The position numbers were made by a program, and so were the translations under genes. From positions 1 to 56,526 of the IMG/VR virus record IMGVR_UViG_3300033571_007182: a stretch of DNA of 56,526 bases. One strand, written 5' to 3'. Within the stretch, counting starts at the first letter, position 1. The number at the start of each line of letters is the position of its first letter. Shown piece by piece: positions 27,201 through 42,600 of the stretch. The notes beneath the pieces were generated by a model that saw nothing but the letters and a program-made list of their open reading frames with translations, was not told the origin of the DNA and did no database searches. The DNA comes from a virus.

Positions 27201-28038
27201 CGACCTTTAGATCATTCATGAATAATTTATTCTCAGCTCTCAGTCCTTCAAATATGGCAACATACTCAGCTGCATACTTAGGATCATTCTTAAGGGATTC
27301 AAAAAGACCTTTGAACAGAGCAGGGCGATCTTGTCTGAGGAACTCCACAAACACGTGGCTTATCTCTTCCAGTGCAATCTGGGGAGTAACCCTTCCCTCA
27401 ACCAGATATATCACATTGTCTTTTACAAAGGAGTTGATCCTTCGTATGTCAGTATAGTGCTCAGTCTGTTTAAGTTGATTTGGAGATATCCATTGATATG
27501 AAACCCCAGGGAACTTGCGGATCATATACTCCATTATAGGAGTGATCTTTTCCTTCTGTCTTTGTATCTCTTCCTTGGTATAGTTAGGAGCATATGAAAA
27601 GATGCTGGACAATGCAGTTACTTTGGCATAGCCAGGTTCAGCACGGCTTTCTTCAAGTTTGTATCTGGATCCAGGTATGGCTTTTTCAAGACTGTTCTTT
27701 ATCCTGACAGCTTCCCTGAAAGGAATGTATCCTGTTTTGCGGGCGATGCTCTTATATCTAGGATCCCTCAGTACATCATATACACTGAGGAATACCATGC
27801 TGGATATAGGTTCTCCATTGGCATCCAAAGACACCTTTGAAGGTTCATTTATCCAGTCTCCATAATACCCCATGAACTCAGGAGTATATGCCGCAGCCCA
27901 GGCAAGTATGGCTTTGTCAGCATTTTGACCAAATGCAACAAGCGCATCCTGGTATAGGATGGAGGGCTCACCATTAGGAGCATACACATTAACAACTTTC
28001 CCAGAATCGGGATCTCTTAGTATAGCACAATTTGACAT
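21226..28038 (-). CDS. Giant polyvalent virion protein with PD-(D/E)XK nuclease domain
   Basis: 2,270 residues. Around 195-290 is a zincin-like segment 'ALEEISHVFVEFLRQ' (224-228 reads EEISH instead of HExxH, so the first zinc His is lost), with the candidate third ligand Glu284, then an amphipathic stretch 'LGKLFKRFFDWLANALG'. At about 480-660 lies a PD-(D/E)XK nuclease: 'FGTFFHTLIED', 'GRLDLMAL' (Asp571), 'VMDLKTS' (Asp585, Lys587), 'HMQLALYGEML'. The centre is long coiled coil. Near the C-terminus is one hydrophobic helix ('AGREILIAIAFYMLY'). Such mixtures match phage polyvalent proteins delivered with the genome. The gene lies two bases after the RNA polymerase gene. Confidence 0.75.
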   Translation of the reverse strand: MSNCAILRDPDSGKVVNVYAPNGEPSILYQDALVAFGQNADKAILAWAAAYTPEFMGYYGDWINEPSKVSLDANGEPISSMVFLSVYDVLRDPRYKSIARKTGYIPFREAVRIKNSLEKAIPGSRYKLEESRAEPGYAKVTALSSIFSYAPNYTKEEIQRQKEKITPIMEYMIRKFPGVSYQWISPNQLKQTEHYTDIRRINSFVKDNVIYLVEGRVTPQIALEEISHVFVEFLRQDRPALFKGLFESLKNDPKYAAEYVAIFEGLRAENKLFMNDLKVVAQSEFIARNLATALKAELEMNPEGRPLSPLGKLFKRFFDWLANALGMPRIDPKMTLQDIAAHLNSKYTEMELPTEPYLYYNADPNANFDPEDRDAAEELNPIGETQRKKKTAQELNLQRAKENVEKLNKMKAFVLRTKPNNKQRENQIAVIDILIDNANYQVTELEAGRATVSITKYKGSEDTESLDNKTAEMGANFGTFFHTLIEDLQDSYMENGINPTKLYTQEWFDAFYEKHKKMIQFKDVDKQLLFDAGLEISQALSSEFLRGKILLPEISVAVEDAQGTLILGRLDLMALDELGRVSVMDLKTSKSAHSLVNLNGGPMFPMIDLSVSYTNKNGWKDGVSEFFADILNRTKMNTYHMQLALYGEMLKKLGIVVSSRNVLALAYRVQGKEADQQTVVQTAFHVFDDSSFYTFAFNGQKASDEGRIIDTAARLAFNGREEEIDEDAAAETDPGPFARMSKDVQEDLINRLIKLATDQLATIEKERSEIEKNDLIDKDEKNNLIKILTKRKAGLVDMSEKLKLAISNPASSESLAASRAVIIKAALDVFSNEISTISRKINEDIDIPATYKLGSDENRTAIATLQSYLTSMDNMADYLQGFKNTILATTLDPDSQKDEALKKDLIRYFDDKLFTIDAQNQKMVNIGKSITKAIIMETIGTKNFEKVFGEVKKVLAPRLAWLDRTIEKIKKGEAPADTMGLKARRVLASIFKQVQNPKERLQLLEEERNKIARMMDINQLTDATLDTYLDGILNDDNSSFSMGQTMGNVLGISMSDIIGSNADSEMIVSAMFQYMRNMTEDARIEALRWADSLGIDELKRAAIESLGGLQQANKILTQEVEVVTEFDENGEPELKETYRQYVDPVLEDFYKTHDKYRSNLRKYSKLIREKSVEKRNEVDPVKAAILDQQLKELIKEEEALSLEWTQWRIDNTETRIKPEVLMLMHGSGFTNSQITENYSQINAIINAAGGEENLSEDQQEQIDYLEAEISRIRTETIKDNPEAQERIDALLEYFEFDYNYTLWAKKRVAIEASGDKKALERWDYNNTNEVPTEDWNQAREKLYEDMMDILGKDEVLGNLYRERSLIKAKAKIRGKFNFNYLNQEDIDRYHALDEQISNRLAYLRETSPLTEGEAADLTIVTQRLANIEIKVLDPRYIRQRDQLKDTVRKAYAALNEAKKKFTEAPESIGLRDQLDAAQSHYEKTEREFADFFNKNNQSKYTLGENIIAERKALKELPNSYLFVKQPKNPADMERFPNKKYRIKRLKSESYNPKYQNSFVEDRMGGGMYPMPKGIRFNETINEFEISPSAKFVNPNFMTVQNNPIAKDFYKKWIIEQYLIKQKNASGKRLGFNLPYVQQLALENVMAKGMDGMAREYQEKLQEISYQNSELEKATNESGIAGQQRVLFKENHLVPAALTTTDGIGAIVNWNAGYYTNRKMAMISNEMSAVLTFLKDIQRQIQDQSAGLQDANKESHAQRLEAINSIITQIEYNKDKFIFGKLFEKGDSENSVFNRKTMRLFMGVASFARMAFDVPMQFGNMLSGNVQAFLSTSNHRHASTQNYLNAKKMIYTRWFPKMIADWGTVSDASFETKLFRYMNPLSKDLDRLFDANTVSKMRRLGNRIFNITDLSMALQDKGEIEIGLTTMLMIMDGRRYEVFDTDSQGNLLMDDQGNRVVKKNPDGSIVYVNAIDAFGIDENNSIAPKKNVNISQQEINSLKSLIMGEIYRHQGNYANYTKSKFGSTMLGSLYEFYRKYLIPAVSVRFHLGKREGVGSMYSWDTQEAYMGWYMALGRMYQYYGLGKATKTLLYDTLLPGLVKKKINADTGIEQHDFYRGRAAMAGREILIAIAFYMLYQTLRSALYDGDEEDFTYAELSMMRALVKVSNESRSMVPLFVVGKPGDYIDNFGSFTSAFREGKTIWELGNNAFFWANYHTTGSMFAYERGFYQRDTARFEEGDAKVLKNLYDLTGWSNVVDTFEPYEAAKANLKMK

Positions 28039-28040
28039 TA

Positions 28041-31000
28041 TTATCCTCCGTTACAATTTCTTGATTCGTCTTCTTTTTGTTTAAGTACATCCTGTGCCTG
28101 CTGATTGAGCTTTACAATGTCCATAGCTCTTTTTTCAGTGGTAGGAGCTTGGGTAAAGTTAAAACCAATACTTTCTAATGTCTTCCTACTGCTTTCCAAT
28201 TTTCCATAATAATTCAAAGTATTACTTAGTAACTCTACTATTTCATCTTTTCTTGCACTATTACCATCAACTGTACCTCTTAGTGGTAGTTTAAGTTTAG
28301 ATGTGTTATCTATGATAATCCACCCCTCTTTGTCCTTATAGACAAATAGATCAACACTAGGTTGATTTTTTATAACTAGACTATATCCTTTTACAGCGTC
28401 CAATCCTTCAGCTCTTTCAAATGTTTCTAACTTCTTTGACTTAAAGGTTATATCTTCCGCTTTAATATCTGTTACAGCAGGTTGAGCACTTACAGGAACT
28501 TGGGTAGGTGCTGTCACTTGAGGTGTTGTAGGTGCTGAAGACAATGGCTGAGCAGTTGGAGAGGTAGGATCCCCATTGTTTAATTCGTAAAGAAACAAAT
28601 TCTCTTTGCCACTAACAAAGTCCTTGAAGCGTTCGCTGTTGGATAGTTCACCCCAGGTGCTGAATCCAACCCTTTGAGCAAACAGATCCATCTGTTCTTG
28701 CTTCACACCTCTTGCAGCTGGCTCATTATTCAGATACTGAAACAACTCCCCACCAACCATTTTGAACCTTGAGAACTTACCAGTGGTCTCTACAATGCTC
28801 ATGTTGATGGTAGACATGGTCTTGTTAGTGTAGGCTCCTGAAGGATTCTTCTGGGTTCTCAACTCATACATCCTGTTCTGCTCCCTGACAATTGTCATAG
28901 ACCTTGGTACTTCCATCATCCTGGTATCTGATATCTGCTGGATACCATTGACAATGTTCTTGATCACCGCCGCTTCCTGAGAAGTAAATGCCAAAGGAGA
29001 TATCTTACTTACACCTTGTTCTGGAACTACTTCATATACAGCAGTTTCACCTGTAAGTTGTAACTCCTGGACATTGGTGAATGGTGTAAGATACAAGGTT
29101 TCCATCAGCTTTTGACCAACAGGATTGCCATTGATGCGTTTTAACATCATCAGCTGACCGTATATGTTGATCCTATATAAAGGGAACCTGTAGTTCTTGT
29201 CCTTGTAGTTAGGGGTTATACCATATGCCCTGAGCATCTTCGTTTCAAAAGGCTGGGTTACATCTGCAAGATCAAGAAAAAGTACCCCGTCAACGCCAGT
29301 GAATAACTCATACTCATCTGATGCAACCTTGTACTGAGCCTCTAGAGTAGACACCCTTAAACCTTTACTGTCTATGATTGAAGGTGCATTTGCAGGAGCA
29401 ATCTTGTTGAAGAATTTAACCATATCCTCCATAGTCACAGTTTCATCTAGTTGCTGTGATATTTTTCTAAGAGAAGTGACCCGCTTGAATGGCGTCATAG
29501 TTCCATCTGCAAGCTTCATGCTCACAATCTTTATAACTGCATCCTGGATGATGTCATCAATACCCATCTGACCAAAGTTCTTGGATATGGCAGCAGTAAG
29601 CATCTTTAGATATTCTTCTTCTGCTTGTGGTTCTGCACGTAGATTTCCATCTACATCCTCAAATACATCATACTTGTTCTTGATGTAGTTATCCATCTTT
29701 ACCAGATCCCTTTGGAAGCTATCCAAGGCAGTGCTCATGGGTTTGGAAAGCACAGCAGGCACTAATTCAAAGAATCCGCCACGCACCTTTTGAGCACCTG
29801 ATTTCACCATGCCATGGTATGCAATCCTGAATGCACGCTCCTTATCCAGTACACGCATCACCTCTCCATTTACACCCATCTCTTCTGTGGCATATCCCTC
29901 ACCCAATAACTTGAGCAAGTCAGAGTATACCATCTCACGCATCTCAGGAGAGAGCTTGCTGGATATTGCTTCCAATACCCTTACAGGTCTAGAGGTAGTA
30001 CCTATATCCACAATCCTCAAAGCCTGGATGAACTTGTTACCAGGATACCTGGACTTGAGTTGGTTATAGTCAGCAATGACATCCCCATTGAGGAATGTCT
30101 CAGGATTCACCTGCTCCAAGAACATCTTATTCATGAATGACTCAGGCTCGCGTTGTGCCATTGCACGCTGCAATTGAAGTCCAATGAAAGCCTTGATGTC
30201 CTTACGTATCTCTGAACTTTCATACCCATAGATATTACCTATGAGTGCAGACATACCTTTAATCAAACTAGTACGCTCAAGTAGCACTTTGCTGGACATG
30301 TTGTCCATGTACTTCAATGCTTCATAAGACTCTCGCAATACAGGATACATCTGAAACAAGTCCTGGATTGACTTTTTACTCAACATCAATTCTTCAGGAC
30401 GAGTCCTGACTATATCAAAGGTATTTACCAACCTGTCGAAGGTATCCATGTCAGGCTTGATAGACTTCAATGCATCTGTAAGCTTGGTGATCTTAAAGCT
30501 GATCTCCGAGGCCAAGTTGCTATAGTTTTTGAACTCATTGAGAATGATGAAGTCCTCGATGTCCCTGGTAAATGCAATGTTCTTTTTGTTGTAAAGCTCA
30601 AATCCAAAAGTGTTCAAGGGCTGATCTTTGCTAGATCCAAACTCAGGATCGTCCTTTTTGATCTGGTTATTCCACACAAGCTTGTAGGAATCCTTATCAA
30701 AGTTGGCTCCAGTCTTACTCAAATACATGATGTCTTGATCCAATAACTCCTCAATCCCTATGCGTTCTTCAAGCTCATTAATCATATCCCTGAGGAATGT
30801 ATCAAATCGCATATCCTTGGAATAAGGATTCTTTTTATAGGCACTGCCATACTCCATAGTATATTCAGCCACTATCTTTTGGATTATAGGTAGTGACTGG
30901 AACATGATTGCCATACGCTGTGGCATGCCTACGGTGAACATGGCAAGCATTACAGGAACAGTATGACTGTTCAAATGCAATGGACCTGGATATGGATTAT

Positions 31001-34000
31001 TAGCAGCATCCGCCGCAACACCGATATAACCACCCACAATCTTCACAGATTCATCAACAACTTTGTCTGTGACAATACTCTGCTCTGGATTACCCTTGGC
31101 ATTGGGTTCATATACAGTCCCCACTTTTCCTTTGAGTTCTGCCTGCACAGTAGCCAGCATACTCACACCCTTGTTGAAGCTTGCCGCTATACCCAAAGAA
31201 TCTTTGGATTCAGAGTTCAAACCTCTAGCCACAACCATGGCTGTAGGAGTATATATATTTTGTTTGTTATATATTTCTGTTTCACTCAGTCCTCTTTCTG
31301 AAACTGCAGCCTTGTAAGGATCCGCAGCCACATCAGCCCTGTTTGATGATTCTTCCATGAACTTCTTATATACAGCCTCATTGGATAGGATATTCATCTT
31401 GGCTTGCAAGATTTTGTTCTGAATAAGTGGGATCACAGGAGAACCATTCTTCTTAGTCTCTTTCTCAAGACTGTCAGGATCTGATGGAAGATTGGATTTC
31501 TTCAAATCTTCCAGCACATTGAATACAGCAATAACTCTCTTGAAGGTATCTATGGATTCCTGTTCTGAGTCACTCTCTACTTCCCCCTTTTCCATAGTGG
31601 ATGCATTCTTTGAGAAGAACTCTTCAAGCTTACCGCCAAAGAGACTTCCAAAGTTCCTGGCCTGCTCTTGCTTATAACCTGCTTCGTAGTTAATCCTTCT
31701 AAGTTCTGACTGCAAAAGTGGCTGCATTACAGGATCCTTGGATAGATACACCAGGTATTCCATAAACTTGGCATCCTTCTCAGACATATCATACTTCTCT
31801 ATGTAATGAGAATAGTCTCCATACAATACCTTTTTTCCATCAGGAGTCCTATAGGATGACTTGACGTGGGCATATAGCGCATCAATGTCAAAGTCAGATC
31901 CTGCAAGCATGTGCGCTTGGGGAGGAACAATGATACCAGAACCATAGGCCTCATCCATATAGTCAACCACCTTGGCTACAATCATGGAACGCTGACCCTC
32001 AGTAGGGATACGAGTAGCAAAGAACTCACTCATATACTTCTCAAGGAACTCTTGGTCAAGAGACTGAAGCTCTTTGGGAATGATCACTTCCACTTCATAC
32101 TTGTAAGTACCATCAGCAAGTTTGGTCTTGGTATAACTCAAAGGTCTTACCTTGGCTTCACCCGCAGCAATGGCTTTGTCATACTTAGACTTGTTACGCT
32201 TATACTCAGAAGTAGTTATCACCTTACCATCCATCTCGATTACATTGTAACCCATGGAACTGACATGGTAATACTTCCTACCTGCTATCTTTTTATCAAA
32301 CAGGTTATTGTTGAATATTGAAAAGAAGTAGTTGGCAATGGTGGACTGCACAACCATCAAATTTGGATTGTACTTGGGACTACCATTTGGATTCAGTTCA
32401 AAGTACTGGAGTATGGTACTGTCCGCACCTTGCTGCTTAAGACCTGCAGAGATGACCTGATAGATCTTACCTATCACCTCTGTGTCTTTGGTGTTGAACA
32501 TCCTTTGAAGCACTTTCAACTGGGTCTTCACCATCTGGGCAAGACCTGTGTTGTATGTGTTTATGTCATCCTTGATAGAGGCATACTCAGGATTCTCCGC
32601 GGCAATCTGTGCAGCAAGCAACAGCTTCTGTTGGATACCTTGGGTAACCATGTTGGCATCCTTTTCAGTAGAGACCTGGATGAATGTGAATTCATTAGGT
32701 AGATCCATTACTGCCTGATCAAGGTTGTAATAAGTCATTCCTGTAGTAGAAGGTTGTAAGTCAACCTCCACAGGATTGATGGTCATCTTCTTACTTGCAT
32801 TAGGATCAAACATCTGGTCAATCCTATGGAGTTCCATGGAATTGAGCATGTGATGCATGAATGCATGTTGAGGTATGGGCTCGAAATAAGAATGAGCCTG
32901 GGTCACAGCTTCTTTGTATAATTCAGATACAAGCCTTTCCCTGTTGTTTGAAGGATCAAACACCATCTCATCCCTGCCAGCCTGCAGCATATAACTATAA
33001 TCCATGATGCGATCATAGAGTACATCCAGCTCTTGCATGGCAGTATTATAGTCAACACCCTCTTTGAGAGTACTGACATCTTTTCTCATAATAGTATGCT
33101 CTGACTGTTTGACGTATTCAATACGACCTGCAGTCACAGTCTTCAAGCTGTTGAAGACAATACCTCTCTTGTTGAGTTTGCGTACATTCTTAGCATACTG
33201 GGAAGTGTCTTCTGTTTCATACATCATGCGCTTAAGCATTCTGTAAGATTCATTGTCAAGCCTTCCCCTGCTGTCAGCCACATTGACCATCCTAGCAATG
33301 GTATTGTAGGACTGACCATCAATCATCTTCACTTCTACATTGCGCTTGTCACCCTTCTCATAGTAAGGAGTGAAGCTCGCAGGCTTGGTAAGATCAGAGT
33401 CATCTAGATACATGACAATCTCTTTTATCACAGCAGCCCTGTATGTCTTACTCACACCATATTTGTTCACATGGGGATTGAATAAGCTAGGACCAGCAGC
33501 AGCACCAGCCTTCTGGCGTTTGAAGAAGTTGGCAAAGTTCTTTACACCCACCGCTACTGGACCATCAAAGATCTGGTTCAATGAAAGAGAGTTTATCCAG
33601 TTATTGAAGAAGAACTCCCTGAGAACAGTGGTTGGATTTGCATTCTGGAATACCTGAGCCTCTTCATCAAATACATCTGTCACATACAATGGAATATGTG
33701 TCTCATCCAATCCCAGGCTTTGAAACTTATCCCTGAATGTCACATACTGATTCTGGGCATATTTGTGCAGGTTATTGAGCATGTCATCCACCAGGACTTT
33801 CTCAGACTTGGAAGCCATGATGGCATCAAATGACAATCCCTCCTTGGCAGCCATGATCAACTCTTTGGCAAGATCAGGATTGGCATCTGCAAAGTCAGCA
33901 AGCACATTGAACCTGAAACCCCTGTCTTTGGGGAACCCTGTCTTCTCGTCTATGGCAGAGTTGATGTTGTAGTTGAGGTACTTCTTGGTGTTTGCATCAT

Positions 34001-37000
34001 TGGTTCTTTCCTGCTCGTAGTTAGTACGAATCAATTCATACTCCTGCTTGAGGACATTGACAAGATCCCATAGGTATTTAGGACGACCATTTTCTGAAAG
34101 TACATTGCCAGATGCATTGTCAAAATATCTTCTAAGTACACCATTGGTGACCATACTGGTACCAGTGGCTTCATATACTGTAAGAATCCTTTTGAATGAT
34201 GTGATGTAACTCTTGGTCTCAGGTACATATATCCTTTCCTGACTGACAAACAGTGAGAGCATGGACATCAAAAAGGCAGCATCATCAATATCTTTGAATG
34301 TCCTAGGGTCACCCATCTTGACACCCCCATCTGGCATGTTGAATCTTTGTTGGAATCCAGCAAAGACTTCCATGCGCATGTTCTGAAGGAACGCGCGCAC
34401 TTCTGGATCATTGGTGTCCAACATAGGATTGTTCTCATAGAAATGCTCGAATCCATCATTAAGAACTGCAGCAAGACCTTCTTCAATATTATCAAAAGAT
34501 TTGAGCTTTTGAAGAATGATCATCTCCTTGTTAGGATCCACATACTTGTATATGGTGTCACCATTGGCATTCTTAGTGCTTGATCCAGCAATTGTAGGGT
34601 CATGCTTTATAATATACTCACCATAGGCAGCCACATACGGAGTAGTGAACCTCTTCAATGCTGTAGTCAATGCCTCATTGTTCATGCGCATCTTGGACTC
34701 ATTGGATGCTTCCACGGAAGCTTCGATCGCATTGACAAGATTGTGATACCAGAAGTCATGTTTTACCTTGGAGAAATCTTGAAAGAAATCCTTATTTAAA
34801 CTCAATGACCTTCTGAAGTCACTGTTCTGGGGAAACATGGCCAGGTTCTTACCCATGGCCATATAGACCGTATGACCTATTGCATTATACAGAAGCGAGT
34901 AAGGTATGTCTAAATTGAAAGCTGACAGTGTGATATATACATCATCAATGAAGTTCCTGAAAGCATGGTCATTGATCACACCACTATCTGTGAAGAAAGT
35001 ATCCAGCATGTTGTCAATGGCAGACTGCTTGGTTATATTAAGCAGCTTGGCCAGCTCACGCAACTTCTGCAAGTGAGGTTTTGCCTGATCCTTAGTCATG
35101 TCTATTGACAATATGGAATCACGCAGCGAACTCCTTATCTTATTGATATCATAAAGCGTGACAATATCTGACACAGCAGACTCAGGTGTAGGAACAGGTA
35201 CTGGCTTTTTGTTCTGGTCGAACTCTATCTCAGTAGTAACCTCGGCTTGGATAAGCTTGATGTTGGTTTTTGAGAATACAGTGGAGAACTGCTTAAGTAC
35301 ATGCTCGTTTCGAGTTGCCTCGAAGTCTTCATTGAGACCTACGATGTTATCTATGGTATCATATACCGCCTTGAGACTGTCCCTGAGCTTGATGGCCTTG
35401 TCATAACTTATTGGAATGACATTAGGGTTTGGCAGTTTGCTTTGTACATTCTCCCTGAAGTATTTGATCTGGGAGTCCAGCTCTTGTATCTTATCACTTA
35501 TGGCTTGAATGGCATTACCCTTTGACTCTGTTGAGGCAATCTTGGTAATGGTACTGAATATCAAAGCAGAGTTTACCATCCTGCGCACCTTGATGCCAAG
35601 GACAGGATCTATCTCTTCATAAGTAATCAAACGAATCATCCTGCGGAAAGCAGCATTGCCCTCATTGGGTTTTATACCAACAAAGCCTGCGCCCTCATAG
35701 AATGAATCCTTGATTTCAACCTCTTCATCTTGCTTGTTGAAGTCTTCTTCAAAATTCTCATCATCCGCTACATCTTCAAGATCTTCAAGCTTATTGTACT
35801 CCTCTATAACTGTAGACTTCAATCTTTTAAGGTTGGCTATGACAATATCATTCTGCTTTTTACTTGTAGTAGCTTGATTATCATACTCCTGTGCATTGGT
35901 CAAGTTTCTATATGTAAAGGTCTCACCCTCTAGCATGGCTCCTAAAAGCCATCTTGCAGTGGCAAACTCCTCGCCATACTTAGCCAAGATCTCAGCTTCT
36001 TGTTCTGGAGACTGGGATATCAAGGTATTGATGTCCTTCATCTTAAGCACCTCCATCCTGGCCAAGTCAAACAACTGAGAAGCAGACATGTCAGGATTCT
36101 TGATAGACAATGCAGCCATACCTTGAAGTATGAAGTCCTTCACCTCCAAGGATATTTCAGAACCTATGATCTGGTTGTTGGTGATCACTTTACCAGTGGT
36201 TTCAACATATGCCATAGGTATACCCCTGAAGTCAAGGCTATACACCTTCTCCATATTAGGACCTTGGTTGTCTATGATCGGAGCATTCCTGAACTTACCC
36301 AGGCTGATGTCATAGAACAGATTGTCAATCCTGCCACCTTTCTTGAACAGGTTGAGCAGCTTCTTGAGATATGCAAACAGCTTTTGCATCCATGTCCTTG
36401 GAACCTTGTTGGTTCCCATGAAGTCAGCAAAGGAATCAGCAAGGTATTCTTCATATATGAGGAATCGTATCTGGTCATCATTGAGGTGACCATACTTACG
36501 GCGCTGACGAAAGTCATTGGCATATATCTTCTTGCCCCGTACACTGATGTACTTACCCTTGTCATCTGTCTTATATCCACCAAGGGCTTCTTCTACCTTG
36601 TTAAGATAGAAGTCCTGTTGTGACTTGGAAAGCACTTTGCGGAATATACCATGGAATCCTTCGTGATATGCTACACCTTTTGCACGCAGAGTCTCATTGA
36701 GATAGATGAACATATCCTGCATGTAACCAAGCACATGACCATCCACATTCATACCATTGAGACCTGTGCTTACAAAAGTGAAAGCATCAGGCATGAGATC
36801 CTTCATGGCTTGTATCTCAGAAGAGAAATCTTCATTTGAGAGTGTCAAGAAGGATTCAATATCTTCTACAAGGGAGAAAGGATTTTCATTATTCTGCTCA
36901 TCAATCTCATTAAGATTGACAGGCTGGTTCAAAGGATTCTCTACAGAAGTAGGATCCACCAGCACTTTACGAGCTGGCTTTGGTACTTGTATGGGTGCAC

Positions 37001-39689
37001 TGTATGGAGCCTCCTTCATAGGTTCTTCAAGCAGTCTGTTAGGAATACTTGATAAAACCCTGGTTGATGACTCATTTGCAGTAACAGTCAGCTTCTTTTG
37101 GTCATTGGTCTCCAACCTGTCATAGGCATCCAGGATATCAGTCTTCTCTGTTCTACGCTTTACCTTCATGATGTTGCCATCAAACATGGAAAAGTCCTTG
37201 AACTTGGAAGTGAATATGGGCATGGCCAGATCACCATCATGGACATCACTGTCATGCTTGGTCATGGTCTGGGCATACTTCCTTTTTATATCAGCAGAAA
37301 GATCCTGTACAAGATCACTTATCTTTTTCACAAGCGCATGTTCCGAGCCAAGGATATTCATGGCTTCCATGGCACTCATGTTAAGTTGTTTCACAGATGC
37401 GTTTTCTGGAATCTTCACCCCAGCTTCCTTAATCATCTGGTCCAACGCTGTGAACAAGGAGTTCATCATATCAGAACTGAACTCGATATCATAGTTCTTG
37501 CCTTTCTTATCAAGCATCTCAGCTCTCTCAGGGTCATTGTTCTGAAGCTCTGGCAGACCAAAGAACCTGATACCATAGGTCTTCTTGCCACCCACTTCTT
37601 TCAATACTGTGAACTGAGCTCTGGTATCATCCATCACATCAAATCCCCACAATATATTGTTAAGGTCAGCAGTGGCAGTGTTACCTTCTTTTATGCTAGC
37701 CTGCATAAAGCTGTATACAAGACTACTTGCAAAGTCCACAGCATCCTTGCTGTTGCGCACGCGCTTGTCATACATCAAAGGAATGATCCTTGGATTCAAT
37801 CTATTCCCTACATACTGAAAGGAGAGATATACAGCCTGGTTATTACCAAAGTTGGATGTGATCTCCTGGGTATAATCGACCCCTTCTGATTTCAGATAGT
37901 TCTCAATACTCCTGTACTTGGTGCCATCCCTGCCTACAATAACAGTATTCTTGGGAAGAGTGCTCTCAATTGTCCACACACCTTTCTGCTTACGAAGAAC
38001 AATGTATATCCTACCTGAGTAAGGTTGTGCATTTTCCTGATCTGTGCTTTGCAGCATTACAGGCAATGAGCCATCATTCTCTTCAATGAACTCACGTAAG
38101 CTAGTCTTAGGCTTGGCATCTGAGATAAGTTCAGAAGTCTGGATGTTATTACTTAGGTTATAATACCTATTGAATATATCCTTGATGTCCACATCAGAGC
38201 TATTCTCTTGCTCCATACGCTCCATCACTTCTTTTTCAAATGCTTTGTATCGAATCAAAGACTCTTTCAACTGCTCAAACTGATTGTCAGTCATGGAGCC
38301 ATATGTCTCAGGTCCAGTCTTGGTTTCAACATTGGCCCTGAGGATATTGACATGCTCAGTGTTGTTTATATCAAAAGGAACTACACTATTGTCAGGATAT
38401 ACTATTGCAAGATTAGCCAGAGTATCCAGATCAAATCCATTATTACCCAGCTGATCATTGATCCTTATGGTGAATCCTGATACAGGCCTGTATAATGTTA
38501 TGATGGGACCATTGCCATTCCTAAGCATCTCACGCTGATTAGGTCTTTCCATTGTCTCAAGAGTCCTATTGACATCAGGATATTCCTGAGCCAGTCTTTC
38601 AACGCGTGATGCATTTAACTCCACAGTATTGGTATGGGCACGAACTGTCACTGAAGATTGGAATGGTGCACCTATTGGAGCATTTTGGGAAATTGCCTCA
38701 GCTCTTTCACCTTGTATCTTGTCATTCTCATAAGGTATGGATACCCCTGTAAACAATTGATCAGGTTGTATGCGTAATGCACCAGTGTTAGGATTGGTTA
38801 CATATAAGTTATCTTTTTGTGGAAACACTTTAGTAGCATGATCACTTTTATCTTGAATATAAGGTTCAAGATGCTCTTGTGTTCCTGGAGACCAGTATAC
38901 ATCAATTCCCTTTTCAGGTGAATACACTACTTGTATATTTTCACCATTGGGTTTAGTGACTATCTTAATTGGATAACCATTGTGCATGCTTATGCCTTCT
39001 ACCGCGGCCAAGTCAAAATACTTTGAACCTTGGGTGGCGGATTGAAGCATGTTGTCAATAGCATAGTTCACATTCTCCAAGACTGATACCTTGGTGGATG
39101 AGTCCTCTCTTTTTGACAATACTTCTTTGAGGTACTTAAGCATGTTGCCCACAGCTGTTGTCTGAGGATCCAGGACAACTTCATTAAGCTCCACAGCATT
39201 GTCAGTAATCATCTTAATGATGTCATTGACATGACTGGAAAGATCAGATTCTGTAATCTGTGATGTTTCAGCTATGGCATCATTGATTCTTTCTGACAGA
39301 CTGCGGTCATCGGATTCAATTACTTCAACAGGAGCTGCTGGTGCTGGAGTAACTTCTGGTGTCACTGGAGCAAGTAACTCATTGATCTTACCAAGAAGCA
39401 TATCATAATCAAACGCCTGCTCTCCATTGAGGAAAGGTTTGAGGTAGTTATGCAACTTCCTATATGCACCATCACTCCACTGTTGGGTTTGCAACTCAGG
39501 AATGTTCTGGGCAGCAGTATCCACAAAGCCAGCATAGAACCATACAGCATGGATCTTGGCTTCTGGGGAAAGACTAGTGCCCATTACAGAGCCAATCACT
39601 GCGGATAACTCTTTGAACTTGTTGAAATCACTCCTGTATGCGGCCAGCAAGGTATTCTGAAGGCTATCATATGGTACGAAACAACTCAT
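28041..39689 (-). CDS. Giant virion RNA polymerase polyprotein (crAss-like)
   Basis: 3,882 residues, about 1,700 more than the characterised crAss-like RNA polymerase of phage phi14:2 (gp66, about 2,180). 'IIVPPQAHMLAGSDFDIDAL' holds the catalytic metal-binding motif DFDID at 2599-2603, as in single-chain polymerases related to RNAi-type (QDE-1) enzymes. Upstream is a zincin domain: 'AYHEGFHGIF' (HEGFH, 1009-1013) with the third-ligand helix 'YEEYLADSFADFM' (Glu1080/1081), then a hydrophobic/basic helix. Pro/Ala/Thr linkers lie near 107-122 and 3706-3739 and set off terminal domains. It is probably packaged, injected and used to transcribe early genes; the protease domain may cleave this or other cargo proteins. 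Confidence 0.85.
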   Translation of the reverse strand: MSCFVPYDSLQNTLLAAYRSDFNKFKELSAVIGSVMGTSLSPEAKIHAVWFYAGFVDTAAQNIPELQTQQWSDGAYRKLHNYLKPFLNGEQAFDYDMLLGKINELLAPVTPEVTPAPAAPVEVIESDDRSLSERINDAIAETSQITESDLSSHVNDIIKMITDNAVELNEVVLDPQTTAVGNMLKYLKEVLSKREDSSTKVSVLENVNYAIDNMLQSATQGSKYFDLAAVEGISMHNGYPIKIVTKPNGENIQVVYSPEKGIDVYWSPGTQEHLEPYIQDKSDHATKVFPQKDNLYVTNPNTGALRIQPDQLFTGVSIPYENDKIQGERAEAISQNAPIGAPFQSSVTVRAHTNTVELNASRVERLAQEYPDVNRTLETMERPNQREMLRNGNGPIITLYRPVSGFTIRINDQLGNNGFDLDTLANLAIVYPDNSVVPFDINNTEHVNILRANVETKTGPETYGSMTDNQFEQLKESLIRYKAFEKEVMERMEQENSSDVDIKDIFNRYYNLSNNIQTSELISDAKPKTSLREFIEENDGSLPVMLQSTDQENAQPYSGRIYIVLRKQKGVWTIESTLPKNTVIVGRDGTKYRSIENYLKSEGVDYTQEITSNFGNNQAVYLSFQYVGNRLNPRIIPLMYDKRVRNSKDAVDFASSLVYSFMQASIKEGNTATADLNNILWGFDVMDDTRAQFTVLKEVGGKKTYGIRFFGLPELQNNDPERAEMLDKKGKNYDIEFSSDMMNSLFTALDQMIKEAGVKIPENASVKQLNMSAMEAMNILGSEHALVKKISDLVQDLSADIKRKYAQTMTKHDSDVHDGDLAMPIFTSKFKDFSMFDGNIMKVKRRTEKTDILDAYDRLETNDQKKLTVTANESSTRVLSSIPNRLLEEPMKEAPYSAPIQVPKPARKVLVDPTSVENPLNQPVNLNEIDEQNNENPFSLVEDIESFLTLSNEDFSSEIQAMKDLMPDAFTFVSTGLNGMNVDGHVLGYMQDMFIYLNETLRAKGVAYHEGFHGIFRKVLSKSQQDFYLNKVEEALGGYKTDDKGKYISVRGKKIYANDFRQRRKYGHLNDDQIRFLIYEEYLADSFADFMGTNKVPRTWMQKLFAYLKKLLNLFKKGGRIDNLFYDISLGKFRNAPIIDNQGPNMEKVYSLDFRGIPMAYVETTGKVITNNQIIGSEISLEVKDFILQGMAALSIKNPDMSASQLFDLARMEVLKMKDINTLISQSPEQEAEILAKYGEEFATARWLLGAMLEGETFTYRNLTNAQEYDNQATTSKKQNDIVIANLKRLKSTVIEEYNKLEDLEDVADDENFEEDFNKQDEEVEIKDSFYEGAGFVGIKPNEGNAAFRRMIRLITYEEIDPVLGIKVRRMVNSALIFSTITKIASTESKGNAIQAISDKIQELDSQIKYFRENVQSKLPNPNVIPISYDKAIKLRDSLKAVYDTIDNIVGLNEDFEATRNEHVLKQFSTVFSKTNIKLIQAEVTTEIEFDQNKKPVPVPTPESAVSDIVTLYDINKIRSSLRDSILSIDMTKDQAKPHLQKLRELAKLLNITKQSAIDNMLDTFFTDSGVINDHAFRNFIDDVYITLSAFNLDIPYSLLYNAIGHTVYMAMGKNLAMFPQNSDFRRSLSLNKDFFQDFSKVKHDFWYHNLVNAIEASVEASNESKMRMNNEALTTALKRFTTPYVAAYGEYIIKHDPTIAGSSTKNANGDTIYKYVDPNKEMIILQKLKSFDNIEEGLAAVLNDGFEHFYENNPMLDTNDPEVRAFLQNMRMEVFAGFQQRFNMPDGGVKMGDPRTFKDIDDAAFLMSMLSLFVSQERIYVPETKSYITSFKRILTVYEATGTSMVTNGVLRRYFDNASGNVLSENGRPKYLWDLVNVLKQEYELIRTNYEQERTNDANTKKYLNYNINSAIDEKTGFPKDRGFRFNVLADFADANPDLAKELIMAAKEGLSFDAIMASKSEKVLVDDMLNNLHKYAQNQYVTFRDKFQSLGLDETHIPLYVTDVFDEEAQVFQNANPTTVLREFFFNNWINSLSLNQIFDGPVAVGVKNFANFFKRQKAGAAAGPSLFNPHVNKYGVSKTYRAAVIKEIVMYLDDSDLTKPASFTPYYEKGDKRNVEVKMIDGQSYNTIARMVNVADSRGRLDNESYRMLKRMMYETEDTSQYAKNVRKLNKRGIVFNSLKTVTAGRIEYVKQSEHTIMRKDVSTLKEGVDYNTAMQELDVLYDRIMDYSYMLQAGRDEMVFDPSNNRERLVSELYKEAVTQAHSYFEPIPQHAFMHHMLNSMELHRIDQMFDPNASKKMTINPVEVDLQPSTTGMTYYNLDQAVMDLPNEFTFIQVSTEKDANMVTQGIQQKLLLAAQIAAENPEYASIKDDINTYNTGLAQMVKTQLKVLQRMFNTKDTEVIGKIYQVISAGLKQQGADSTILQYFELNPNGSPKYNPNLMVVQSTIANYFFSIFNNNLFDKKIAGRKYYHVSSMGYNVIEMDGKVITTSEYKRNKSKYDKAIAAGEAKVRPLSYTKTKLADGTYKYEVEVIIPKELQSLDQEFLEKYMSEFFATRIPTEGQRSMIVAKVVDYMDEAYGSGIIVPPQAHMLAGSDFDIDALYAHVKSSYRTPDGKKVLYGDYSHYIEKYDMSEKDAKFMEYLVYLSKDPVMQPLLQSELRRINYEAGYKQEQARNFGSLFGGKLEEFFSKNASTMEKGEVESDSEQESIDTFKRVIAVFNVLEDLKKSNLPSDPDSLEKETKKNGSPVIPLIQNKILQAKMNILSNEAVYKKFMEESSNRADVAADPYKAAVSERGLSETEIYNKQNIYTPTAMVVARGLNSESKDSLGIAASFNKGVSMLATVQAELKGKVGTVYEPNAKGNPEQSIVTDKVVDESVKIVGGYIGVAADAANNPYPGPLHLNSHTVPVMLAMFTVGMPQRMAIMFQSLPIIQKIVAEYTMEYGSAYKKNPYSKDMRFDTFLRDMINELEERIGIEELLDQDIMYLSKTGANFDKDSYKLVWNNQIKKDDPEFGSSKDQPLNTFGFELYNKKNIAFTRDIEDFIILNEFKNYSNLASEISFKITKLTDALKSIKPDMDTFDRLVNTFDIVRTRPEELMLSKKSIQDLFQMYPVLRESYEALKYMDNMSSKVLLERTSLIKGMSALIGNIYGYESSEIRKDIKAFIGLQLQRAMAQREPESFMNKMFLEQVNPETFLNGDVIADYNQLKSRYPGNKFIQALRIVDIGTTSRPVRVLEAISSKLSPEMREMVYSDLLKLLGEGYATEEMGVNGEVMRVLDKERAFRIAYHGMVKSGAQKVRGGFFELVPAVLSKPMSTALDSFQRDLVKMDNYIKNKYDVFEDVDGNLRAEPQAEEEYLKMLTAAISKNFGQMGIDDIIQDAVIKIVSMKLADGTMTPFKRVTSLRKISQQLDETVTMEDMVKFFNKIAPANAPSIIDSKGLRVSTLEAQYKVASDEYELFTGVDGVLFLDLADVTQPFETKMLRAYGITPNYKDKNYRFPLYRINIYGQLMMLKRINGNPVGQKLMETLYLTPFTNVQELQLTGETAVYEVVPEQGVSKISPLAFTSQEAAVIKNIVNGIQQISDTRMMEVPRSMTIVREQNRMYELRTQKNPSGAYTNKTMSTINMSIVETTGKFSRFKMVGGELFQYLNNEPAARGVKQEQMDLFAQRVGFSTWGELSNSERFKDFVSGKENLFLYELNNGDPTSPTAQPLSSAPTTPQVTAPTQVPVSAQPAVTDIKAEDITFKSKKLETFERAEGLDAVKGYSLVIKNQPSVDLFVYKDKEGWIIIDNTSKLKLPLRGTVDGNSARKDEIVELLSNTLNYYGKLESSRKTLESIGFNFTQAPTTEKRAMDIVKLNQQAQDVLKQKEDESRNCNGG

Positions 39690-39695
39690 GGTATC

Positions 39696-42600
39696 TTATG
39701 TATTACAAGCTTGTTTTAATGATTCAAATGGATTCTCACCCTGCGGCTCGAAGATTTCAGATGTTTTAGATGCTGCTATGGATTGCTGTATAGTATCCAG
39801 CTTCTTGGCTGTGATATTATTGGCCATCCTTGTTCCAGGACCTAGACTGGCTTTCTGTTGTGTGTCAGCAACAGCTGAAGATTTCGTCTCAGACTTACCT
39901 CTCTTGGATGCCTTCTTCTCAGCCTTCTTGTCTACTGACTCTACAGCAGTCTTTACTGATCTTGGCTTGGGCTTTTTTCCTTCAGGTTCGACTCCAGCTT
40001 CCTTAGCACCTCGTTTGCCTTTTCTGGGGGCAAGAGCTTGATCAAGCTGTTCAATTCGCTCCTTTTCTTTAGCACCTCGTTTTGTAGCTCTTTTAGGTTT
40101 TGTTCGTTCTGTGGCATCTGCATCTATTATTTCAGATATGGGATTGACATACTCCTGGATCAACTCAGCCATGGTTCCTTCCAAGACTCTGTTGCCCATG
40201 TATATTGTAAACTTACTTTTTATCTTGTTACGAAGGTCAGAAGCCCACATGAATAATTTCATCAAGTCTTCTTGAGTCATATCAGCTCTGGTCTCAGAGT
40301 TATTCCACTGATGTATCAAGAAGTTGATATCAGGAGTCTTACTGTCCCTGATAATCTTATTCACTTGATACTGAGCCATTAACTCATCACTGCGAAGTTT
40401 GCGCTCCTCCATTGACATGACTTCCTGAGTGGCTTGGGCAATAGCCATATCAAGACTCTCAATCTCAGTAGCAGCATCCATTACGTTATCTGGAATGGCA
40501 CGAGTCATCATAAGAAAGGCATTGACCCTGCGGATGTAGTCTTGAACCTTTGGATCAGTACCAAACATCTTTTGGACCTTTCTCTTACCTTTCTTATTAA
40601 CAGTGGTCCTGTTAAATCCTATAATCTCTCCCGCTTGATTTCTATCTACACTCCAGGTCACATTGTTTATAGTGACTTCATTAGGGTTGTTTGTAGATAT
40701 TTCCATAGTAACTACCCCAGACTCCTGGACATCTACCTTGGCAGCAACTGTATTAGACACCACTGTGGCATTCTCAGGGGACTGCTTTACATAGGAACGT
40801 GAAAGATCTGTAAATGAGTCAAATGAAGCTTCCTCAGATACAGGGCCCAACAGAACCATGTCTCCATTATCATATTCCAGAATAAACTGGTCATCGATGA
40901 TTCGCAAGGTACCTGATGTTCCATTGAGAACTACAGGAGTACCTACGAAGTTTATCAGCTTGGCCTTCTCATTATCTACAGCAGTAACAGTTTCTGTTGT
41001 CTGTTGGGAGTTTTGGATGATCTCATTGCCCTTCTGGTTTACAAACAGACCATACTCATACTCCATGAGAAAATGGAACAGGGCATTGTAATTATCAATA
41101 GCAGTATCTACTGGTACATGCTCTTGATTTTCATCAAGTATTTTTTGATTGTTTGCATCATAAGGATACAGCTCACTTCTGAGTTTAATCCTTAAAGCCC
41201 TGGGGAACTCAACCCTCTCACCATTGGCTCCTATATAATATCTTTTTACAACCCTTTGAGCAAGATCTTCACTGGCAAATGGGAAGTTGTCCCGCAACCC
41301 ATCAAGATCATAACGCATGGCCATGAACTCAAGGGCAAGGTGTGTAGTGGCAGGATCTTCATATAATGATATGATATCCACATAGTCCCTACTCTGGTCT
41401 GAAGCTGCCTGTTTTTGAGCTCTCTCCTTTTCAACTGCCTCTTGCTTAGCTTTCTCTTCCTGGGTACGCTGAGCTTCAAACTCAGATGATTTACCAGCAA
41501 GTTTACTGCGAAGCTGCTCTATCTTCTGAAGGTTTTCAAATGTGCCTGAAGGATTCTTACTGATCTTGAGTAGTTCCTCAAGAGCTTGTTTTTGTTCAGG
41601 AGCTTCTACCCACTCTCTTGCAACTTCACTTATCTCACCAAGCTTTTGATATTGATCATATATCAATCTGGCAAAAGCACCCGCCCTGGCATCTTGCATC
41701 TTTGCAATATGATTGGTGAATGTCTCAGGATCATTTAGCAAATTTATAGCCTGTACATACTCAGCATGATCTCTACCTAGAGCTACATAGTCCAGAATTG
41801 TGTCCAAGGCATCGTATACTTCCTGTTCATTTACAGGAGTTTTTACACCATTCTGTTCATTCTTGGTTTGCAGATATCTAGAAAGAACAGTAGCAATACC
41901 TTTTCTAAGTCCTGCTTGATCCTTGAGTGCCATACGAACATCCCAAAGAGTTATCTTTTTGGAAGGATCATTTGGATCTTTAGCAATTTGAGGATCATAC
42001 ATGAACATTTTAAGTATGCTCAAGTCATCTATCTCTTGATTTTTACCCTCAATGGCTTTCTTGGTCTGGTCTGTTTGCTCTATATCACTTAGAGTCTTTA
42101 TCTCATTTTGAAGAAGGAGCAGTTGATTGTCGATCTCATCTGGGTCGATGATGGTATTGAATGCTCCAGACAGACTACTGCCTATTGAAGCATAGGAGGC
42201 AATCTCCTGCAGCATTTGTTTTTGGCGTTCAACACTTTGTTGACCCTTAGCTTCCATGAAGGATACTGTTTCAATGGCATCTAATAACGCCGCCTTCTTG
42301 ATTCCAAACCTTTGTTTGGCTCCAGGATCCTTCATGTATTCATCCATGCCCAAGTACAAACCAAACTTGGTCATGTTCTTGTCATAGATATCAGAGAACT
42401 TCTTTACAGAATTGGATATATCTCCCATGACTTCAGAAGGAGATGACTTGCCTAACTCCTGAGGAGTGTAATTGAAAGCCTCTTGAAATTCCTTTTCACT
42501 AAAATTCTCACCATATCCTTTTATAAAGGAGCTTAGATGATCCATGGTTCCAGTTCTTCTTGCATGCATCACCGCAGCTATCAAAGCTGAATCTCTGTTG

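What the first reader, a model, noticed from the sequence alone, without database searches (positions are those of the whole stretch)
28041..39689. RNA polymerase and zinc metallopeptidase signatures in one 3,882-residue reading frame
The frame contains both the DFDID catalytic motif (2599-2603) and, about 1,590 residues earlier, a complete-looking HEGFH zincin motif with an EE..AD third-ligand helix. Pro/Ala/Thr linkers near both ends suggest separable domains. The protein is far larger than the characterised phi14:2 enzyme. The protease could release the polymerase from a precursor, mature other cargo proteins, or act on a host target after injection. A protease-activated injected polymerase would be a distinctive mechanism.
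Basis: partly seen in the sequence, partly recalled or inferred. Interest (0 to 1): 0.8.

Follow-up and report, generated by a model that had tools for sequence, protein, structure and literature searches.

The report
Phage polymerase-protease with linking end-cysteines
A giant protein that a crAss-like phage probably injects into its host joins a likely zinc protease to an RNA polymerase, and it and its two neighbours carry cysteines just where their ends would meet, as if the proteins were linked into one chain before injection.

Summary
In detail: one uninterrupted 3,882-residue frame, on the minus strand, holds HEGFH (1009) and DFDID (2599). Residues 931-1150 are confidently predicted as a zincin (pLDDT 87.5); residues about 2399-2941 match the phi14:2 and crAss001 virion RNA polymerases. 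The fusion is common: 49 of 49 polymerase-baited frames reaching far enough upstream carry the HExxH, and 111 of 160 zincin-baited loci are fused. Public records label comparable proteins "ZnMc_tr" or "peptidase"; zincin processing of injected giant proteins was proposed in 2017. In other lineages zincin and polymerase are separate genes, so cis-release is not essential.

Unexpected: the cargo string A-zincin-polymerase-C is cut into chains at different places in different families, and nearly every cut has a cysteine on both sides (22 of 23 junctions in 17 genomes; the miss looks like an early start call), while free ends have none (0 of 17, 0 of 16). The window's three proteins (1,620, 3,882, 2,270 aa) have no other cysteine. 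I propose disulfide-tethered cargo, threaded through the tail and released by cytoplasmic reduction, with an active zincin beside the polymerase. Disulfides and protease activity are inferred, not shown.

The parts
28041..39689 (-). Link B: 3,882-aa giant cargo protein (N-module, zincin, RNA polymerase, C-module)
   Evidence: Open frame; homologous to crassvirus RNAP proteins; only 2 cysteines, residues 3 and 3879
36240..36899 (-). Zincin metallopeptidase domain, residues 931-1150
   Evidence: AlphaFold2 pLDDT 87.5, pTM 0.87 on a 116-row alignment; structural neighbours are zincins
36651..36665 (-). HEGFH, residues 1009-1013
   Evidence: conserved
36435..36452 (-). EEYLAD third-ligand helix motif, residues 1080-1085
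30867..32495 (-). RNA polymerase region homologous to phi14:2 gp66 1168-1659 (residues about 2399-2941)
   Evidence: hhalign 97.8%, E 1e-12; four control proteins at 0.2% or less
31881..31895 (-). DFDID catalytic motif, residues 2599-2603
   Evidence: DFD[IV]D, DLD[IV]D and DKDID in relatives
39330..39419 (-). Pro-rich linker, residues 91-120
36903..37070 (-). Pro-rich, poorly conserved linker just before the zincin, residues 874-929
28443..28610 (-). Pro/Ala/Thr-rich linker, residues 3694-3749
39681..39683 (-). Terminal cysteine Cys3 of link B (MSC start)
   Evidence: 37 of 37 in the clade
28053..28055 (-). Terminal cysteine Cys3879 of link B (NCNGG end)
   Evidence: 44 of 44 in the clade
39696..44558 (-). 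Link A: 1,620-aa protein encoded just upstream; its only cysteine is residue 1618 (ACNT end)
   Evidence: 34 of 34 in the clade have a Cys in the last 12 aa
39705..39707 (-). Terminal cysteine Cys1618 of link A
21226..28038 (-). Link C: 2,270-aa protein with PD-(D/E)XK nuclease domain (residues 470-591); its only cysteine is residue 4
   Evidence: Pfam PF12705 E 1.3e-5; 43 of 43 in the clade start with a Cys in the first 8 aa
28027..28029 (-). Terminal cysteine Cys4 of link C

Best explanation
The protein is the middle link of a three-protein ejected transcription cargo of a crAss-like phage. Shown here by sequence or model: a zincin fold with a complete, conserved HExxH...E site, followed by a crassvirus-type DxDxD RNA polymerase, in one frame; giant partner proteins encoded on either side; and cysteines that sit at the chain ends that would meet and not at the free ends. 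Inferred: in the virion the C-terminal Cys of A pairs with Cys3 of this protein, and its Cys3879 pairs with Cys4 of C, giving one covalent thread that is extruded through the tail; the reducing host cytoplasm undoes the disulfides and frees the polymerase to transcribe early genes; the zincin, placed N-terminal to the polymerase in this clade, is an active endopeptidase that acts on the cargo (or a host protein) around delivery. I give about 0.97 to the domain assignments, 0.85 to the zincin being catalytically active, 0.6 to the disulfide tether, and 0.35-0.4 to cutting in cis.
For: Zincin fold: pLDDT 87.5, order helix, 3 strands, HExxH helix, EE helix; the first 20 VIA-align rows are PPEP-3, IrrE/PprI, Certhrax and anthrax lethal factor chains, Z 6.9-5.5; 14 of 17 PDB profile hits are zinc metalloproteases, though weak (best E 0.08) and 11 of the 14 are versions of one protein, Zmp1/PPEP. 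Third-ligand motif E-x(2,3)-A-[DE] in 46 of 46 polymerase-baited and 145 of 160 zincin-baited sequences against 12% of random stretches. Polymerase: hhalign to phi14:2 gp66 97.8% and crAss001 gp50 97.8%, controls 0.2% or less. Fusion conserved: 49 of 49 frames that reach, 111 of 160 loci. Cysteines: window A, B and C have 1, 2 and 1 Cys in 7,772 residues, all at junction ends. Window clade: 34/34, 37/37, 44/44 and 43/43 junction ends carry Cys. 17 genomes: 22 of 23 junctions have Cys on both sides, free N ends 0 of 17, free C ends 0 of 16, neighbouring proteins 1 of 49 (N) and 3 of 49 (C). Fused chains follow the same rule at their remaining ends. Two of three loci whose break lies inside the polymerase part have cysteines on both sides of it (L148, L158). 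In crAss001, cr128_1 and cr85_1 A and B lie on opposite strands, so no DNA-junction effect explains it. Inter-protein disulfides are reported in the crAss001 virion (PMC10172136). crAss001 gp47, gp49 and gp50 are virion proteins (PMC10172136; PMC6235969).
Against: No virion biochemistry: disulfides and protease activity are not shown. Misses: L171 (upstream Cys, none at the next start), L101 (polymerase C-end), next-gene misses L198 and L228, and 8 of 62 fused chains without a C-terminal Cys; of these L164, L183, L194, L225 and L243 end in or beside the catalytic motif or like the cr131_1 break, while L118, L130 and L198 are unexplained. In the same of 81 fused and 5 of 33 unfused zincin proteins do have an N-terminal Cys; I did not inspect them one by one (window-clade loci, where this is expected, are in the set). 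Intestiviridae and Suoliviridae chains carry several internal cysteines. Foldseek finds no significant PDB match for the zincin (best E 0.52), and Z under 8 can reflect a common arrangement. phi14:2 gp67 lacks the upstream zincin. No variable linker or conspicuous conserved site lies between zincin and polymerase (residues 1141-1200), against a simple cut there. N4 delivers its polymerase as one chain, which has no Cys, so tethering is not needed in general.
Confidence: 0.6

Rival explanations
1. Protease-activated polymerase (first reader; general form in Iyer 2017): the zincin cuts the giant chain in cis or trans, before packaging, in the head, or after injection, and this releases an active polymerase.
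For: The zincin lies N-terminal to the polymerase in the window clade and Suoliviridae, and at the end of the preceding protein in crAss001, cr128_1, cr85_1 and Dulem virus 41. An HExxH motif of unproven kinship sits at the same place in Intestiviridae, and another near the start of the C protein in phi14:2 and some Suoliviridae. A Pro-rich variable linker precedes the zincin. P1 DdrB is processed and carries such a domain (PMC5512222, passage).
Against: Split lineages keep the zincin although the polymerase is already separate. N4 virion RNAP, with an HExxH domain, is packaged uncut (PMC5512222, passage). crAss001 virion gels, run under reducing conditions, have bands at 270 and >300 kDa (PMC6235969, passage; which protein is in which band was not seen). 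No conspicuous site at 1141-1200.
Confidence: 0.35
2. Host-directed effector: the zincin is delivered with the polymerase to cut a host protein (defence factor or host RNAP factor), and its attachment to the polymerase only serves delivery.
For: Zincins in polyvalent proteins and polymorphic toxins are proposed or known to act as effectors (PMC5512222, passage). The domain is retained whether or not fused to the polymerase. Structural neighbours include the ArdC antirestriction protein, Z 4.6.
Against: Its place beside the polymerase is kept across distant phage families and its core residues are strongly conserved, which suits a cargo substrate at least as well as a varied host target.
Confidence: 0.3
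3. Terminal cysteines are not a covalent tether but a packaging or docking signal, a metal-binding pair, or a site of modification at chain ends.
For: Only one Cys per end; its position drifts by a few residues. No biochemical data.
Against: A general signal would be expected on free ends too; they have none (0 of 17, 0 of 16). When a break moves, the cysteines mostly move with it (L148 and L158 yes, L171 on one side only; Suoliviridae, Intestiviridae and Steigviridae compared).
Confidence: 0.3
4. HEGFH is a chance or degenerate motif and the region is not a peptidase.
For: Pfam and PHROG searches see nothing in the window copy at the zincin.
Against: 49 of 49, invariant ligands, confident zincin topology.
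Confidence: 0.02

Closest known systems
crAss-like virion RNA polymerase phi14:2 gp66 (PDB 6VR4 as cited in PMC10770324) and crAss001 gp50
   Same: DxDxD polymerase by profile match over 469 and 615 columns; giant virion cargo; giant partner proteins; terminal cysteines at both ends
   Different: gp66 (2,180 aa) and gp50 (2,412 aa) have no HExxH in the same chain; here a zincin is fused in a 3,882-aa chain
Suoliviridae (delta) giant proteins such as cr4_1 gp26 and cr55_1 gp_05964
   Same: HEA[FW]H then DFD[IV]D in one chain, 1,431-1,773 residues apart in seven genomes; zincins homologous (cr4_1: hhalign 98.2%)
   Different: Zincin lies at 1,665-2,426 because a longer module precedes it; no N-terminal Cys
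N4-type virion RNA polymerase (gp50, polyvalent protein)
   Same: Giant ejected single-chain polymerase with an HExxH zincin-like domain (HELVH at 2228; PMC5512222; PMC12633501)
   Different: T7-like polymerase, zincin C-terminal to it, no cysteines in gp50, gp51 or gp52
Zincin MPTases of polyvalent proteins (Iyer 2017); PPEP/Zmp1, IrrE and lethal-factor-like folds
   Same: Fold order and HExxH plus helix glutamate (against the description); structural neighbours
   Different: No significant sequence-family match; best PDB Z 6.9, Foldseek not significant

Membership tests
Crassvirales virion RNA polymerase | DxDxD catalytic motif in a homologous sequence context | tested here: met
   hhalign 97.8% to phi14:2 gp66 and crAss001 gp50, controls 0.2% or less; tblastn hits
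Crassvirales virion RNA polymerase | Two double-psi beta-barrels in one chain | not tested
Crassvirales virion RNA polymerase | Packaged in the virion and active on early genes | not testable with these tools
   Reported for phi14:2 and crAss001 in papers (passages), not for this phage
Zincin metallopeptidase superfamily | HExxH on a helix | tested here: met
   Residues 1009-1013 on model helix 76-88; conserved
Zincin metallopeptidase superfamily | Third ligand glutamate on a following helix | tested here: met
   E1080/E1081 on model helix 141-163; conserved; distance to the histidines not measured
Zincin metallopeptidase superfamily | Three-stranded sheet with N-terminal helix before the HExxH helix | tested here: met
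   H22-35, E41-45, E58-61, E64-68, H76-88
Zincin metallopeptidase superfamily | Significant match to a solved zincin | tested here: inconclusive
   VIA-align Z 6.9 and below, first 20 rows metalloprotease folds, some rows to residues 53-263 of lethal factor; Foldseek best E 0.52
Zincin metallopeptidase superfamily | Zinc binding and proteolysis | not testable with these tools
   Needs protein
Polyvalent protein (Iyer 2017) | Disparate enzymatic domains in one giant protein delivered with DNA | tested here: inconclusive
   Disparate domains met; delivery inferred from relatives

The most novel reading that the evidence does not exclude
Crassviruses package their transcription machinery as a covalent head-to-tail thread: N-module, protease, polymerase and C-module are joined either by peptide bonds or, wherever the thread is cut into separate gene products, by an inter-chain disulfide between a C-terminal and an N-terminal cysteine. 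The thread is pulled through the tail as one string and falls apart by reduction in the cytoplasm (helped by the zincin), switching the polymerase on.
Probability: 0.55. Interest if true: 0.9.

Novelty: new variant of a known kind. Interest (0 to 1): 0.76.

Why it matters
How megadalton cargo is ordered, threaded through constrictions under 50 angstroms and reactivated is an open question for crassviruses, described as the most abundant viruses of the human gut (PMC10172136). A redox-labile tether would explain why the polymerase proteins come in such different fused and split forms, predicts a single ejection unit, and can be tested with one non-reducing gel of a cultured phage. The conserved zincin next to the polymerase gives a second, separable release or effector activity to test.

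Tried and rejected
Chance motif: rejected. Sequence families: Pfam and PHROGs gave nothing convincing for the window protein (one PHROG of unknown function at E 0.043, residues 668-693); members of the zincin alignments gave only weak, mixed hits, including Tox-MPTase4 in 3 of 116 (best 3e-4) and Peptidase_M41 in 3 of 116. phmmer of the whole protein against PDB gave only a weak DisA match, and a profile of the polymerase core found no polymerase in PDB by sequence. The first structure job with 11 sequences was poor, pLDDT 50.5, and was superseded. Placing the zincin-polymerase junction by homology to split polymerase N-termini failed (at most 3.4% for residues 1100-1600). The HExxH regions of crAss002 gp32, cr8_1, phi14:2 gp65 and cr4_1 gp27 could not be shown to be homologous to this zincin (1.2-10.4%). 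Bacterial and archaeal genome contigs gave no relative; plasmids gave no near DNA match to crAss001 gp47; phage records gave no near DNA match, and tblastn with the zincin domain gave only chance-level Lactobacillus phage hits. In one search, 15 of 160 zincin-baited sequences missed the third-ligand pattern: most have EE..AN or AK instead, L140 and L144 have no such motif in the stretch. In one search a motif pattern undercounted fused loci (74); the profile count (111) replaces it. An in-script control came out empty and was replaced by the control proteins. One search's 35 of 35 accepts any Met in the first 60 residues of the open frame; one search takes the first ATG at or after the upstream stop (minus 60 bases) and is the stricter count.

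Rows dropped: loci with an identical polymerase-frame stretch were counted once, but near-identical ones (such as L036/L037) stay; one locus per unique zincin core (134 of 160 loci). Of the named genomes read, cr1_1 was left out of the 17 because its proteins have the same lengths and motif positions as cr55_1, and cr131_1 because its polymerase frame is interrupted at the catalytic motif; the cr131_1 B/C junction does have cysteines on both sides. Relatives were capped: searches kept 80 of 156 and 80 of 101.

Literature searches for crAss with zincin, metallopeptidase, protease, disulfide or ZnMc, and virion RNA polymerase with cysteine residues listed no paper on the crassvirus zincin or on terminal cysteines. 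Several listings were cut (20 of 2,607, 20 of 28, 20 of 3,258, 20 of 153, 12 of 47), and only held open-licence papers were searched. Yutin 2018 and Drobysheva 2021 are not held, and no figure was seen, so a zincin label there cannot be excluded. Papers seen: PMC7886860 (passages, part 1 of section 7), PMC10172136, PMC6235969, PMC10136315, PMC12633501, PMC10770324, PMC7824862 (passages), PMC5512222 (abstract and passages), PMC11054128 and PMC12386605 (term counts, all zero).
Full report
WHAT IS THERE. The finding's coordinates hold one open frame on the minus strand: 3,882 residues with no internal stop. The window is an IMG/VR virus record of 56,526 bases. A 21,299-base stretch of it is 100% identical to contig IMGVR_UViG_3300032288_003086, 124,086 bases. 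Of ten other window proteins scanned, four on the + strand match phage helicase, exonuclease, DNA polymerase and primase families and six on the minus strand match nothing. tblastn of residues 985-3882 against phage records hits 85 records; the 40 listed are crAss-like phages or unannotated faecal phage records, most annotated as putative RNA polymerase.

THE POLYMERASE. A profile of 35 full-length rows (window and relatives), cut to residues 1700-3000, matches phi14:2 gp66 (97.8%, E 1e-12, residues about 2399-2941 to 1168-1659), crAss001 gp50 (97.8%), crAss002 gp33 (98.7%) and cr8_1 (99.3%); four other giant cargo proteins used as controls give 0.1-0.2%. The catalytic motif, as located by my pattern, varies: DFDID, DFDVD, DLDID, DLDVD and DKDID occur.

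THE PROTEASE DOMAIN. On a 116-row alignment AlphaFold2 gives residues 931-1150 a mean pLDDT of 87.5 and pTM 0.87, in the order helix, three strands, HExxH helix, insert, helix with EE. That is the zincin core as described for polyvalent-protein MPTases (PMC5512222, passage). VIA-align puts PPEP-3, IrrE/PprI, Certhrax and anthrax lethal factor chains in the first 20 rows (Z 6.9 to 5.5). Some lethal factor rows align to residues 53-263, which from recall is its non-catalytic zincin-like domain. Foldseek sees no significant PDB match, but among predicted viral structures its best hit is the cr4_1 giant protein, E 2e-6. The profile search of PDB sequences is weak (best E 0.08), yet 14 of its 17 rows are zinc metalloproteases, 11 of them versions of Zmp1/PPEP. 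By analogy with Zmp1/PPEP the third ligand should be E1081; this is recalled, not tested.

HOW COMMON IT IS. To avoid choosing relatives by the protease motif I baited with the polymerase core (alignment A3). Of 55 loci, 6 are cut too short; the other 49 all have HE[AGST]FH in the same frame: 46 lie 1,525-1,730 residues before DxDxD, L065 at 1,496, and in L082/L083 my pattern did not locate DxDxD. There are 39 unique zincin sequences among the 46. Baiting with Steigviridae-type and Suoliviridae zincins gave 160 kept loci (some contigs twice; 134 unique cores): 111 fused, 11 with the polymerase on the opposite strand, 4 split on the same strand, and 34 with no polymerase found in the fetched DNA. 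In named genomes the fusion is present in Suoliviridae cr4_1, cr55_1, cr52_1, cr50_1, cr113_1, cr1_1 and cr7_1. In crAss001, cr128_1 and cr85_1 (Steigviridae) and Dulem virus 41 the zincin is near the end of a separate protein; in Dulem virus 41 the polymerase gene starts 33 bases further on. phi14:2, also Steigviridae, has no HExxH in the protein before its polymerase, but one in the protein after it. The window zincin is homologous to those of crAss001 gp47 (98.4%) and cr4_1 (98.2%). Public records hint at such domains: 'ZnMc_tr' in Rudgehvirus jaberico and 'peptidase' in cr107_1, both on the Intestiviridae protein that precedes the polymerase; for two Intestiviridae proteins of that kind (crAss002, cr8_1) I could not show homology to this zincin.

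WHAT THE SPLIT LINEAGES SAY. Because the polymerase works as a separate protein in phi14:2 (activity reported in papers of which I saw passages) and is a separate gene in crAss001 and its kin, release by an attached protease cannot be a general need. Yet in crAss001, cr128_1, cr85_1 and Dulem virus 41 the zincin is kept, with its HExxH, on the same side of the polymerase. No variable linker or conspicuous conserved site lies between zincin and polymerase (residues 1141-1200), while a Pro-rich, variable linker lies just before the zincin (874-929). If the zincin does cut its own chain, that linker is the more likely place.

TERMINAL CYSTEINES. While checking N-termini I saw that 35 of 35 polymerase frames of the clade have a start of the form M-x(1-3)-C, against 4 of 5,290 internal methionines followed by Cys within three residues. 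The window's three giant proteins have 1, 2 and 1 cysteines: A at its end, B at both ends, C at its start. Across the clade, with a stricter start rule and identical loci counted once, junction ends carry Cys in 34 of 34 (A end), 37 of 37 (B start), 44 of 44 (B end) and 43 of 43 (C start). The flanking letters and exact positions vary, so it is the cysteine that is kept. In 17 genomes (window, Steigviridae, Dulem virus 41, Intestiviridae, Suoliviridae) 22 of 23 junctions have it on both sides. The one miss, crAss002 gp33, has MSCTPSNPKLDKL 32 residues after its annotated start; cr107_1's protein, 32 residues shorter, begins MSCTPSNPKLDKLL. Free N ends: 0 of 17. Free C ends: 0 of 16. Neighbouring proteins: 1 of 49 at the N end and 3 of 49 at the C end.

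TESTS OF THE TETHER IDEA. In fused lineages the remaining ends follow the rule: Suoliviridae A+B chains have no N-terminal Cys but a C-terminal one, and Intestiviridae B+C chains have only the N-terminal one (with the crAss002 start as above). Of three loci split inside the polymerase part, L148 (VHCK / MSINC) and L158 (KKCTTV / MANNC) have cysteines on both sides; L171 has only the upstream one. The cr131_1 frame break at the catalytic motif, with a small ORF of unknown function between, has none, as expected if it is an intron rather than a protein end. Unfused zincin proteins end with Cys in 27 of 27; fused ones in 54 of 62; the next same-strand gene starts with Cys in 29 of 31 (fused) and 3 of 4 (unfused); opposite-strand polymerases end with Cys in 10 of 11 and their next gene starts with it in 11 of 11. 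Zincin proteins lack an N-terminal Cys in 72 of 81 fused and 28 of 33 unfused cases; the other 14 were not inspected, and window-clade loci, which should have one, are in the set. In crAss001, cr128_1 and cr85_1 the partners lie on opposite strands, so this is not an effect of gene overlap. A single Cys in a 2,341-residue protein (crAss001 gp47) cannot make an internal disulfide. N4, which delivers its polymerase as one chain, has no Cys in gp50, gp51 or gp52. Inter-protein disulfides are reported in the crAss001 virion tail and gp57 dimer (PMC10172136, passages), so disulfides can form in such a particle.

MECHANISM. Most likely the three giant proteins form one disulfide-linked thread in the mature virion, pass through the tail partly unfolded (proposed for crassvirus cargo in PMC10172136), and separate in the reducing cytoplasm, where the polymerase transcribes early genes. 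The zincin adds a proteolytic step whose target is open: the cargo itself, or a host protein. The disulfides, the reduction and the proteolysis are inference; the sequence pattern and the folds are the results.

NOVELTY. The fusion itself is a new member of a known kind, and zincin processing of injected polymerase proteins is a 2017 proposal. The junction-only cysteines were not found in the papers listed by my searches, which do not cover most subscription journals. I score the whole as a new variant of a known kind, with a bolder reading that would be new if confirmed.

Noticed in passing
Link C proteins: L009 (phi14:2 gp65, HEIMH 245), L007 (cr4_1 gp27, HEILH 342), L087 (cr55_1, HELVH 517), L092 (cr7_1, HEIMH 251), L093 (cr131_1, HELLH 343): A second HExxH motif, not detectably homologous where tested (phi14:2, cr4_1), lies near the start of the protein that follows the polymerase; zincins may bracket the polymerase on both sides.
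   Followed up: partly
L006:30414-30683 (cr8_1) and L256:25256-25531 (Rudgehvirus jaberico): Genes annotated as thioredoxin or TRX lie a few genes from the polymerase gene; of possible interest if cargo links are reduced.
   Followed up: no
L093:19073-19868 (cr131_1); L183, L194, L225, L243: Polymerase frames interrupted at or beside the DxDxD motif, in cr131_1 with a 242-aa ORF between, look like possible intron insertions.
   Followed up: partly
L005:16065 (crAss002 gp33): Annotated start is probably 32 residues too early; the true start is likely the MSC methionine, as in cr107_1.
   Followed up: yes
L038, L041: The catalytic motif, as located by my pattern, reads DKDID instead of DFDID in two polymerase loci.
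   Followed up: no
window 21226-28038: PD-(D/E)XK nuclease domain (residues 470-591, E 1.3e-5) inside the 2,270-aa link C protein.
   Followed up: no
L257 (phage N4 gp50, gp51, gp52): These three proteins contain no cysteine at all, 4,294 residues together.
   Followed up: no
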